From Cryobacterium sp. (GTDB lineage Bacteria > Actinomycetota > Actinomycetes > Actinomycetales > Microbacteriaceae): a stretch of DNA of 38,670 nucleotides. The position numbers and the translations under genes are program-made. The stretch is from NCBI GenBank assembly GCA_014376815.1, contig JACMQV010000290.1, forward strand, positions 1 to 38,670. The letters run 5' to 3'. This document shows positions 17,514 to 22,393 of the stretch, piece after piece (position 1 is the stretch's first letter; every line of letters starts with the position of its first letter). Below the pieces are notes generated by a model. It made no database searches, was not told the DNA's origin, and saw only the letters and a list, made by a program, of their open reading frames with translations.

Positions 17514-18377
17514 GTGACGGATGCACCGATAGGAATCTTCGATTCCGGAGTGGGCGGCCTGACCGTCGCCCGGGCGATCAAGGATCAGCTGCCCAACGAA
17601 TCGATCCTCTATATCGGCGACACGGAGCACTCACCGTACGGCCCCAAGAAGATCGCGGATGTGCGCGGCTTCGCCCTGAAGGTGCTCGACGACCTGGTCG
17701 CGCAAGACGTGAAGATGCTGGTGATCGCCTGCAACACCGCGTCGGCAGCCATGCTGCGGGACGCCCGGGAGCGCTACAGCGTTCCCGTGGTGGAGGTCAT
17801 CCAGCCGGCGGTGCGGAGCGCCGTTCGGGCCACCCGCAACAACCGCGTCGGCGTGATCGGCACGCTCGGCACAGTCAACTCCCGCGCGTACGACGACGCC
17901 TTCGCGGCGGCCACGAGCATCCGGCTGTTCACCCAGGCCTGCCCCCGATTCGTCGAATTCGTCGAGGCGGGCGTGACCACCGGTGATGAACTCCTCGCCG
18001 TCGCGGAGGAATACCTGGCTCCGTTGCGGGCCGCGGAGGTCGACACCCTCGTGCTCGGCTGCACCCACTACCCGTTCCTGCGCGGCGCCATTTCGTACGT
18101 GATGGGAGACGCGGTCACCCTCGTTTCCAGCGACACCGAAACGGCCAATGACGTGTACCGCCTGCTCGTCAGCCAGGGCCTGGCGCGCACCGAGGCCGCG
18201 CCGCCCAGTTATCGCTACGAAGCCACCGGCGATAGCGCCGAGGATTTCCTGCACCTGGCCCACCGCTTGATCGGTCCGGAAATCTCCAGGGTCGACCTGG
18301 TTGAGACCGGGTCGTTCAGCCTGAGCGAACTTGCCGAGTTCGCCGCATCACACCCCACCACCAAGGAGATCTCGTGA
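17514..18377 (+). CDS. murI: Glutamate racemase
   Basis: 287 residues, GTG start. Motifs are [17 protein letters not shown] with the substrate-binding Asp and Ser, [20 protein letters not shown] with catalytic C73, and [11 protein letters not shown] with catalytic C183 and the adjacent H185. The enzyme interconverts L- and D-glutamate to supply D-Glu for peptidoglycan in the cytoplasm. Length and both Cys acid/base residues are normal. The stop overlaps the start of rph in GTGA, and rdgB follows, the common actinobacterial order murI-rph-rdgB. Confidence 0.96.
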
Positions 18378-19108
18378 GCGATATTGTGCGCGTAGACGGA
18401 CGAACCACTGACCAGCTGCGCCCCGTCACGATCGAGCGAGGCTGGAGCGACCAGGCCGAGGGATCCGCCCTGATCTCGTTCGGGCGCACGAAGGTTCTCT
18501 GCACGGCCTCGTTCACCAACGGCGTTCCGCGCTGGATGGCCGGCAAGGGCAAGGGCTGGGTCACGGCGGAGTACTCCATGCTGCCGCGTTCCACCGATTC
18601 CCGGATGGACCGCGAGTCGGTCAAGGGCCGCATCGGCGGTCGCACCCATGAGATCAGCCGCCTGGTCGGTCGCAGCCTGCGCGCTGTCGTCGACATGAAA
18701 GCACTCGGCGAGAACACCATCGTTCTGGACTGCGACGTGCTGCAGGCCGACGGCGGCACCCGCACGGCGGCCATCACCGGCGCCTACGTCGCCCTCGCCG
18801 ACGCGCTCGAGTGGGGCCGGGAGAAGAAGTTCCTGAGCCAGAAGGCCCAGCCGCTGATCGACAGCGTGTCAGCCATCTCCGTCGGCATCGTGGGCGGCGT
18901 GCCCATGCTCGACCTCGCCTACGTCGAGGACTCCAAGGCCGAAACCGACATGAACGTTGTCGTCACCGGTCGCGGCCTCTTCGTCGAGGTTCAGGGAACG
19001 GCCGAGGGCGCGCCCTTCGACCGTCTTGAGCTGAACTCGCTGCTCGACCTGGCCCTGGCCGGAACGGTGTCCCTGACCGAGTTCCAGAAGACGGCGCTGG
19101 GGCGTTAG
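18374..19108 (+). CDS. rph: Ribonuclease PH
   Basis: 244 residues, GTG start in a 4-base overlap with murI. Conserved elements are [52 protein letters not shown], the [20 protein letters not shown] phosphate- and RNA-binding helix, and [25 protein letters not shown]. The enzyme is a phosphorolytic 3' exonuclease that trims tRNA precursors, as part of a hexameric ring. This fits a genome in which tRNA genes such as the tRNA-Leu in this window lack an encoded CCA. Full length. Confidence 0.96.
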
Positions 19109-20736: not shown

Positions 20737-21504
20737 TCAGCTGTCGTGCGTGTGCTCGTCGTTCTTGTGGTTGTGATTGTGGTCGTCGAAGACGTCGGAG
20801 TCGAGGACCAGGGTTCCCGTGTCGGTGACGAGCCCGGTGCGCGCGGCGCGCCGGGCCTTCAGTACCGACTGCAGGTAGTGGTAGACGGTGGGGATGAGCG
20901 TGATGAAGACCGCTCCCAGCAGAATCAGGTCGATGTAGTTCTGCACGAACGTCGCCACGGGCGGGATGTAGCCCAGGAAGAAGCCGAAGTAGGTGAGGCC
21001 GGCGCCCCAGAGGAGAGCCCCGATCAGGTTGTAGAGCGAGTACTTGCGGTAGTCCATGTGGCCCACGCCCGCGGCAACCGGCGCGAAGGTGCGCACGATG
21101 GGCACGAAACGTGCCACGATCACGGCGACGCCGCCGAAGCGCACGAAGAACGCGTTCGTGCGCTCGACGTTCTTGACGCTGAACAGGCCCGATTCCTTGC
21201 GTTCGAACACCCTCGGTCCGAATCTGTGCCCGATCAGGTAGCCGACTTCGCCGCCGAGGAAGGCCGAGAACCCGATCGCCAGGGCCACCCACCAGATGTC
21301 CATCCGGATCGCGCCGGCGAAGGTCAGGAGGCCGGTGATGACCAACAGGGTGTCGCCCGGGAGCAGGAAGCCGACCAGGAGCCCTGTCTCGGCGAAAACG
21401 ATCGCACACACGCCCAGCAGCGCCCACGGGCCGAAGCCGTTGATGAGCACCTCCGGGTCGAGCCAGGGGACGACGGCCGCATTGGCCAGAACAGTGTGAA
21501 TCAC
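20737..21504 (-). CDS. DedA family membrane protein with His/Asp-rich C-terminal tail
   Basis: 255 residues, GTG start with AGGAG 8 nt upstream on its strand. DedA features are FAETGLLVGFLLPGDTLL near residue 40, GGEVGYLIGHRFGPRVF, FFVRFGGVAVIVARFVPIVRTFAPVAAG with the conserved R-F-x-P-x-x-R, and GALLWGAGLTYFGFFLGY. The last 20 residues (DDHNHNHKNDEHTHDS region) are rich in His, Asn and Asp and could bind metal. Some DedA proteins flip phospholipids or undecaprenyl phosphate across the membrane; the substrate here is unknown. A second DedA gene lies just upstream on the same strand, about 100 bases away. Convergent with the CDF gene. Confidence 0.92.
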   Translation of the reverse strand: MIHTVLANAAVVPWLDPEVLINGFGPWALLGVCAIVFAETGLLVGFLLPGDTLLVITGLLTFAGAIRMDIWWVALAIGFSAFLGGEVGYLIGHRFGPRVFERKESGLFSVKNVERTNAFFVRFGGVAVIVARFVPIVRTFAPVAAGVGHMDYRKYSLYNLIGALLWGAGLTYFGFFLGYIPPVATFVQNYIDLILLGAVFITLIPTVYHYLQSVLKARRAARTGLVTDTGTLVLDSDVFDDHNHNHKNDEHTHDS

Positions 21505-21604: not shown

Positions 21605-22291
21605 CTACGACGCCGCCGGATCGCCTGGCAGTCCGTCTACCTCGGCACCGGCCGCATCCAGCCGGGTCTGGGCGCGGTCCGCGAACCAGGTGCGCAGTCC
21701 GAACACGATCGAGGCCGCAATGAAGACGCCGGCGATCACGTAGGCGGCGCTCTTGACACCGGGGATGGCCGCCGCGTAGTAGCCGGTCAGGGTGAGTCCG
21801 ACACCCCAGGCCAGGGCCCCCACGAGGTTGCTGCTGAGGAACTTGTAGTAGTTCATCCGGCCGACGCCGGCGATCACCGGCACGAAGACCCGCGCCCAGG
21901 GCATGAACCGGGCGACGACCACCGACCACCAGCCGAACTTGCGGTAGAAGGACTCCGTCTTGACGATGGCCGCGCGGGTGCGCCGCCCACCGTGCCGGTC
22001 CAGGTAAGAGCGTCCGAAGTGGCGCCCCAGCAGGAAGCCGACCTGGTCGCCGAGGAAGGCGGCCACCCCGGTGCCCAGGGCCAGCACCGCGATGCTCAGG
22101 TTCGGCGTCGACGCCGCCACCAGGCCCGACCCGAACAGGAGCGAGTCACCCGTGATGAAAGGGATGAACACCCCCAGGAAGACCGCCGTGCCGGCGAATA
22201 CCAGCGCCCAGACGAGTAGGTAGAAGACCACGACGCCGGTGTTCGCCAGCAGGTCGTTCAATTGGCCGTCCAGGGCCGACATCTGAGTCAT
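21605..22291 (-). CDS. DedA family membrane protein, start codon one base after tRNA-Leu
   Basis: 228 residues from the ATG at 22291, or 225 from the ATG at 22282. DedA landmarks are VFLGVFIPFITGDSLLFGSG, DQVGFLLGRHFGRSYLDRHGG, SFYRKFGWWSVVVARFMPWARVFVPVIAG with R-F-M-P-W-A-R, and GALAWGVGLTLTGYYAA. Five or so hydrophobic segments are visible. The tRNA-Leu discriminator base is at 22293 on the same strand, so only one base separates the mature tRNA from the first ATG. The only upstream sequence that could hold a ribosome-binding site is the tRNA itself. Processing of a joint transcript would leave an almost leaderless mRNA (inference). It probably has a lipid or undecaprenyl-phosphate transport role. 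Confidence 0.9.
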   Translation of the reverse strand: MTQMSALDGQLNDLLANTGVVVFYLLVWALVFAGTAVFLGVFIPFITGDSLLFGSGLVAASTPNLSIAVLALGTGVAAFLGDQVGFLLGRHFGRSYLDRHGGRRTRAAIVKTESFYRKFGWWSVVVARFMPWARVFVPVIAGVGRMNYYKFLSSNLVGALAWGVGLTLTGYYAAAIPGVKSAAYVIAGVFIAASIVFGLRTWFADRAQTRLDAAGAEVDGLPGDPAAS

Positions 22292-22292
22292 G

Positions 22293-22374
22293 TGCGGGAG
22301 AGGGGACTTGAACCCCCACGCTCGAAAGCACAGGAACCTAAATCCTGCGTGTCTGCCAATTTCACCACTCCCGC
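22293..22374 (-). tRNA. tRNA-Leu, anticodon UAG
   Basis: On the minus strand an 82-nt cloverleaf can be drawn. The acceptor stem GCGGGAG pairs with CTCCCGC, the discriminator is A, and no CCA is encoded. The anticodon stem CAGGA/TCCTG encloses loop TTTAGGT with anticodon TAG (22340-22338). A 13-nt extra arm (TGCTTTCGAGCGT) marks a class II tRNA, and the T loop is TTCAAGT. It reads CUA and, by wobble, other CUN leucine codons. Confidence 0.95.
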
Positions 22375-22387
22375 GAAGTGCGGTTCC

Positions 22388-22393
22388 AGTGTA
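22388..22393 (-). promoter_or_regulatory. -10 hexamer TACACT for tRNA-Leu (and probably dedA)
   Basis: TACACT on the minus strand lies 13 nt before the first tRNA base, giving a short 5' leader for RNase P to remove. No separate promoter can fit between the tRNA and the dedA start, so dedA either shares this promoter or has one inside the tRNA gene. Confidence 0.5.

What the first reader, a model, noticed from the sequence alone, without database searches (positions are those of the whole stretch)
21605..22374. A DedA gene begins one base after a tRNA-Leu gene on the same strand
The tRNA-Leu(UAG) discriminator base is at 22293 and the first in-frame ATG of the DedA gene is at 22291-22289 (a second ATG is at 22282). 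There is no room for a separate leader or ribosome-binding site. A joint transcript cut at the tRNA 3' end would release an almost leaderless dedA mRNA, tying membrane-protein expression to tRNA maturation; alternatively the tRNA gene contains an internal promoter. No CCA is encoded, so 3' processing must cut exactly here. The arrangement is seen directly; the regulatory reading is inference.
Basis: partly seen in the sequence, partly recalled or inferred. Interest (0 to 1): 0.72.

Follow-up and report, generated by a model that had tools for sequence, protein, structure and literature searches.

The report
tRNA directly abutting a DedA gene
In a group of cold-living bacteria a membrane-protein gene starts right where a transfer RNA ends, so cutting the transfer RNA free probably also creates the protein's message with no leader, an arrangement that resembles what happens in animal mitochondria.

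Summary
In detail: tRNA-Leu(UAG) ends at 22293, one C follows (22292), and a DedA (VTT-domain) frame starts at 22291. It is conserved: 29 of 57 genus genomes (Cryobacterium, by named relatives) have the exact junction, 23 with an intact frame and 6 with a relic. Four loci of other lineages start with ATG or GTG at the same place. Codon 1 is ATG in 23 of 24 distinct Cryobacterium sequences, the window's second ATG in 3 of 24. Loci with a short leader have Shine-Dalgarno-like pairing in 10 of 11; the 26 abutting named loci have none. The promoter-like element lies upstream of the tRNA. Most likely one transcript is made, and the tRNA 3' cut frees a leaderless dedA mRNA. One correction: the C after the discriminator is templated in 44 of 44 tRNA genes here, and CCA-encoding tRNAs of two other actinobacteria are often cut after that C, so the mRNA may begin exactly at AUG. 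Co-transcription is nearly forced by the anatomy; the cut and leaderless translation are inferred; regulation through tRNA maturation is speculation. Most family members lack the linkage.

The parts
22388..22393 (-). -10-like element TACACT (TANNNT), 13 nt upstream of the tRNA; likely promoter of tRNA and dedA1
   Evidence: TANNNT 9-13 nt upstream of the tRNA in 28 of 28 distinct loci (27 abutting and L023)
22293..22374 (-). tRNA-Leu(UAG), discriminator A at 22293
   Evidence: ARAGORN, Rfam RF00005
22292..22292 (-). templated C74, the only base between discriminator and start codon
   Evidence: C74 in 44 of 44 own tRNAs; 90 of 90 tRNAs placed by Rfam coordinates in five genomes
21605..22291 (-). 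dedA1, 228 aa, VTT_dom (DedA) membrane protein; start ATG 22291-22289
   Evidence: Pfam; first codon conserved, second ATG not
20737..21504 (-). dedA2, 255 aa, second DedA protein with its own Shine-Dalgarno-like sequence; tandem with dedA1
   Evidence: Pfam; -6.9 kcal/mol; tandem in 24 of 24 genus genomes with dedA1
18374..19108 (+). RNase PH gene (3' exonuclease of tRNA trimming), a neighbour, not part of the unit
   Evidence: TIGR01966 360 bits; within about 2.6 kb of dedA1 in 6 of 7 genomes

Best explanation
RNA polymerase starts just upstream of tRNA-Leu(UAG) and runs on into dedA1 (and possibly dedA2). RNase P trims the tRNA 5' end; an endonuclease cuts at the tRNA 3' end, most likely right after the templated C74 (22292). 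This frees the tRNA, to be finished by CCA addition, and a dedA mRNA whose 5' end is the start codon, translated leaderlessly. Shown: anatomy, conservation of codon 1 at this exact place, lack of a ribosome-binding site, a -10-like element upstream of the tRNA. Inferred: joint transcript, cut position, enzymes, leaderless translation.
For: Junction A73-C74-ATG in 29 of 57 genus genomes, 23 with intact frame. Same place, ATG or GTG, in four loci outside the Cryobacterium set (L278, L285, L294, L296), where an in-frame stop inside the tRNA excludes an upstream start. The abutting state needs 4 changes on a quick DedA tree, at least 3 forced by starred branches. Codon 1 ATG in 23 of 24, codon 4 ATG in 3 of 24. 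Anti-SD energy 0.0 in 26 of 26 abutting named loci; -4.7 or lower in 10 of 11 short-leader loci. TANNNT upstream of the tRNA in 28 of 28. First 40 nt less structured than the gene interior (-6.4 against -10.6 kcal/mol, means of 26 loci). C74 templated in 44 of 44 and 90 of 90 tRNAs. CCA-encoding tRNAs often cut between the Cs in P. acnes and S. coelicolor (PMC3848588, PMC4681348). [quoted passage not shown]).
Against: No RNA data for any Cryobacterium. The same papers report tRNAs cut a few nt downstream of the 3' end (CCA-encoding ones in P. acnes, CCA-less ones in S. coelicolor), which here would fall in the start codon. RNase PH is present in 7 of 7 genomes tested, so destructive exonucleolytic trimming is possible. 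dedA1 is dispensable: no ortholog at E below 1e-100 in 13 of 37 genus genomes, a relic in 6 of 57. In the family sample 65 of 97 loci read have no upstream tRNA-Leu(UAG). The window's own 5' end is not notably unstructured (-10.0 against -12.5). L023 has CTG at this place and ATG 3 nt later. The LysR gene of the window lacks a Shine-Dalgarno-like site too.
Confidence: 0.68

Rival explanations
1. tRNA 3' maturation destroys the dedA mRNA (exonucleolytic trimming or a cut inside the start codon); dedA is expressed, weakly, only from uncut transcripts.
For: RNase PH in 7 of 7 genomes tested; no RNase Z match over cut-off in 11 of 11 family genomes; P. acnes and S. coelicolor show some cuts a few nt downstream of tRNAs.
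Against: Exact conservation of an ATG/GTG right after C74 would have no reason; a start codon abutting a folded tRNA without a ribosome-binding site is a poor site on an uncut chimera (inference).
Confidence: 0.15
2. A promoter inside the tRNA gene drives a separate dedA mRNA.
For: One TANNNT (TAGGTT) inside the tRNA.
Against: That element covers the anticodon and would leave a leader of nearly 40 nt without a Shine-Dalgarno sequence; no other TANNNT was found from 70 nt upstream of the tRNA to 60 nt into dedA1 except the one before the tRNA.
Confidence: 0.08
3. Neutral compaction: loss of an intervening gene or leader happened to join start codon and tRNA; dedA is translated inefficiently and nothing else is going on.
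For: Heme oxygenase lies between tRNA and dedA1 in 4 of 4 insert-class loci tested, of 12; dedA1 is a relic in 6 genomes.
Against: The same one-base spacing in lineages that the tree separates, kept within Cryobacterium down to 76% protein identity; no named locus has its first start after the discriminator between +3 and +25.
Confidence: 0.09

Closest known systems
tRNA punctuation of mitochondrial transcripts (Ojala et al. 1981, seen only as a reference in PMC5203842; mechanism recalled)
   Same: tRNA next to a start codon; cutting the tRNA out makes an mRNA with the start codon at or near its 5' end
   Different: Bacterial chromosome, one tRNA and one operon; cut position and enzymes probably differ
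Leaderless mRNAs of actinobacteria (PMC4633059, PMC3848588; passages)
   Same: Start codon ATG or GTG, no leader, no Shine-Dalgarno sequence, same phylum
   Different: Those described start at a transcription start site; here the 5' end would be made by RNA processing
tRNA-mRNA joint transcripts of bacteria (mentioned in PMC10673834; details recalled)
   Same: A tRNA and a protein gene on one transcript separated by tRNA processing
   Different: Those I recall have a leader between tRNA and gene; here no base but C74
MazF-made leaderless mRNAs of E. coli (as described in PMC3848588)
   Same: Leaderless mRNA produced by an endonuclease
   Different: A stress toxin cuts a group of mRNAs; here it would be tRNA maturation of one transcript

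Membership tests
DedA / VTT-domain family | VTT domain above the curated cut-off | tested here: met
   PF09335 58.4 bits, cut-off 33.9
UptA undecaprenyl phosphate transporters | Equivalog score over cut-off | tested here: not met
   54.4 bits against 300 and 33.5 against 250
Leaderless mRNA | No Shine-Dalgarno pairing and an ATG/GTG start | tested here: met
   0.0 kcal/mol and ATG or GTG in 26 of 26 abutting named loci and in the window
Leaderless mRNA | Mapped RNA 5' end at the start codon | not testable with these tools
   No RNA data held for the genus
tRNA punctuation | tRNA directly abuts the start codon on the same strand | tested here: met
tRNA punctuation | tRNA excision creates the mRNA 5' end | not testable with these tools
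   Needs 5'-end mapping
Canonical RNase Z processing of CCA-less tRNAs | RNase Z gene present | tested here: inconclusive
   TIGR02651: 0 of 11 family genomes over cut-off, hits of 27.8-29.5 bits in 3. The cut-off is strict for the class: 0 of 148 over it, though 40 have near full-length matches of about 245-293 bits; none of those 40 is of the window's family, whose 7 sampled members have at best E 3.7e-11

The most novel reading that the evidence does not exclude
Actinobacteria use a tRNA 3' endonuclease that cuts after a templated C74; several Microbacteriaceae lineages have independently placed a start codon exactly at that cut, so that every finished tRNA-Leu yields one absolutely leaderless dedA mRNA: bacterial tRNA punctuation, which couples a membrane protein to production of a tRNA found once in this genome.
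Probability: 0.45. Interest if true: 0.8.

Novelty: new variant of a known kind. Interest (0 to 1): 0.62.

Why it matters
If true, it is a natural bacterial case of a leaderless mRNA made by tRNA excision, a logic otherwise associated with mitochondria. It makes two questions testable at one locus: which enzyme cuts actinobacterial tRNAs after C74, and whether processed (5'-monophosphate) leaderless mRNAs are translated as well as primary ones. It also tells annotators not to reject a start codon because it touches a tRNA.

Tried and rejected
Upstream or in-tRNA start for dedA: rejected. In 7 of 13 abutting unnamed loci no ATG/GTG/TTG lies between the upstream in-frame stop and the abutting ATG, though a CTG inside the tRNA is in frame; in four loci of other lineages an in-frame stop lies inside the tRNA. 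In the other 6 of 13, the window included, an in-frame start exists upstream of the tRNA.

Second ATG (22282) as the true start: rejected, ATG in 3 of 24.

A link between loss of RNase Z and templated C74: not supported; G580 has a near full-length RNase Z match and templates C74 in 37 of 37 tRNAs scanned.

Another abutting case in G580 (L183, tRNA-Gly, ATG at +3): rejected, the frame opens with what reads by eye as a terminator repeat.

A solved relative of DedA: none by sequence (the one hit, E 0.033, is a glucose-6-phosphate isomerase).

Literature: ten searches. In their listings (titles and starts of abstracts; one search listed 20 of 115) I saw no report of a bacterial leaderless mRNA made by tRNA excision, of the tRNA-dedA junction, or of a C74 rule. 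I opened five papers only, four in passages and one also by one whole section; most subscription papers are not held.

Full report
What is there. On the minus strand a tRNA-Leu(UAG) gene runs 22374..22293; C follows at 22292 and the DedA frame opens with ATG at 22291. The protein has 228 residues and a VTT (DedA) domain; UptA-specific models stay far below cut-off. A second DedA gene (20737-21504) follows with its own Shine-Dalgarno-like sequence; the tandem is present in 24 of 24 genus genomes with a dedA1 ortholog. The named near relatives are Cryobacterium.

Conservation in the genus. Of 60 genomes searched (own included; 37 of the genus), 24 have a dedA1 ortholog at E below 1e-100, all of the genus; 13 of 37 genus genomes do not. 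Of the 24, 13 have ATG immediately after A73-C74, 1 (L023) has CTG there with ATG three bases on, 9 have about 790 nt between tRNA and dedA1, 1 has a 72-nt gap to the projected start. An exact pattern search in 57 genus genomes finds the junction in 29. I had already read 14 of these, all intact; the other 15 were fetched: 9 have the intact frame, and 6 (L313-L318) keep tRNA, C and ATG but only a relic of dedA1, with dedA2 downstream.

Conservation in the family. 99 of 398 genomes have a dedA1 relative at E 1e-60 or better. I read 97 of the 99 loci (G071 and G242 not fetched). Of the 97, 32 have a same-strand tRNA-Leu(UAG) upstream within the DNA held (about 1.5 kb in most): 9 abutting or nearly so by projected start, 14 with a short gap, 9 with more than 130 nt; 65 have none upstream, 2 of them with the tRNA downstream of dedA1 and 1 with little upstream DNA. 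The arrangement is thus a minority state of the family.

Named set. Of 80 named loci, 49 have a same-strand tRNA-Leu(UAG) upstream in the DNA held and 31 do not, some of these because the contig ends. Of the 49, 26 have ATG or GTG exactly after C74 (22 Cryobacterium with ATG; L278 ATG; L285, L294, L296 GTG), 11 have a short leader (first in-frame start after the discriminator at +26 to +117), 12 have an insert. Four of the 12 inserts were tested and all four encode heme oxygenase. No named locus has its first start after the discriminator between +3 and +25. A quick DedA tree, built without the first eight residues, needs 4 changes for the abutting state, at least 3 forced by starred branches; 24 of 78 inner branches are open. 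So the exact spacing either arose more than once or was lost several times. The unnamed and named sets overlap in organisms and must not be added.

Which start. Among 24 distinct Cryobacterium sequences codon 1 is ATG in 23 and CTG in 1; codon 4, the window's second ATG, is ATG in 3; codons 2-4 vary freely, while codons 5, 7 and 8 encode the same residue in all. In 7 of 13 unnamed abutting loci no ATG, GTG or TTG precedes the abutting ATG before an in-frame stop; in the other 6, the window included, a start upstream of the tRNA is in frame. In the four loci of other lineages a stop lies inside the tRNA. Start and leader go together: predicted pairing with the 16S tail (recalled sequence) is 0.0 kcal/mol in 26 of 26 abutting loci, -4.7 or lower in 10 of 11 short-leader loci, and +1.7 to -8.8 at the first start of the 12 insert loci; as controls, dedA2 scores -6.9 and the window's LysR gene -1.3. 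The first 40 nt of the abutting genes are less structured than their interior (-6.4 against -10.6), short-leader genes somewhat (-7.1 against -9.8), insert genes not (-11.5 against -11.4); the window itself is weak on this measure (-10.0 against -12.5).

Promoter. A -10-like TANNNT lies 9-13 nt upstream of the tRNA in 28 of 28 distinct loci, 27 abutting and L023; no chance expectation was computed. Inside the window's tRNA the only TANNNT overlaps the anticodon, and none is placed to start a leaderless RNA at 22291. With no base for a terminator between tRNA and gene, a polymerase that makes the tRNA 3' end has to enter dedA1. This is inference from anatomy, but hard to avoid.

How far it is from known things. 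The anatomy resembles mitochondrial tRNA punctuation; PMC5203842 (passages) says mitochondrial start codons lie at or very near the mRNA 5' end. Leaderless mRNAs are common in actinobacteria, and tRNA-mRNA transcripts are known in bacteria. The combination did not appear in the listings of ten searches of the held library. I file it as a new variant of a known kind.

What remains unproven. No RNA evidence exists here. The joint transcript is near certain by anatomy, the exact cut and leaderless translation probable, regulation of DedA by tRNA maturation only possible. dedA1 is dispensable in the genus, so any coupling is not essential.

Noticed in passing
own genome, 44 tRNA genes; G580, G118, G525, G526: C74 is templated in every tRNA gene checked (44 of 44 own by ARAGORN; 90 of 90 in five genomes by Rfam coordinates) while positions 75 and 76 vary; suggests a class-wide tRNA 3' processing rule.
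   Followed up: partly
L207:1667-2176 (G525, another family of the class): A cyclophilin gene starts with ATG after only CGTT behind the discriminator of tRNA-Ala(UGC); a second candidate for a tRNA-made near-leaderless mRNA.
   Followed up: partly
L138, L167, L154 (own genome): Other tRNAs followed closely on the same strand by protein genes: tRNA-Lys and a Na+/H+ exchanger (start at +18), tRNA-Tyr and an inositol monophosphatase (about 31 nt), tRNA-Gln and a nucleotidyltransferase with hexapeptide repeats (about 71 nt).
   Followed up: partly
window 17514-19108 +: Glutamate racemase and RNase PH genes lie near the tRNA-dedA unit; RNase PH is within about 2.6 kb of dedA1 in 6 of 7 genomes.
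   Followed up: partly
L313-L318: Six genus genomes keep the tRNA-C-ATG junction but dedA1 is a decayed relic, while dedA2 is still present downstream.
   Followed up: yes
L245, L282, L295, L299: In relatives a heme oxygenase gene sits between tRNA-Leu(UAG) and dedA1.
   Followed up: partly
L260, L264: Two Cryobacterium (C. melibiosiphilum, C. frigoriphilum) have CCA after the discriminator of this tRNA and a leader with strong Shine-Dalgarno-like pairing (-11.7 and -8.9), the opposite of the abutting type.
   Followed up: no
L263, L040, L041: In three loci the tRNA-Leu(UAG) lies downstream of dedA1 on the same strand instead of upstream.
   Followed up: no
L311: A record titled Bifidobacterium breve (MAG) carries a DedA that groups with freshwater-type actinobacterial MAGs; perhaps mislabelled or contaminated.
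   Followed up: no
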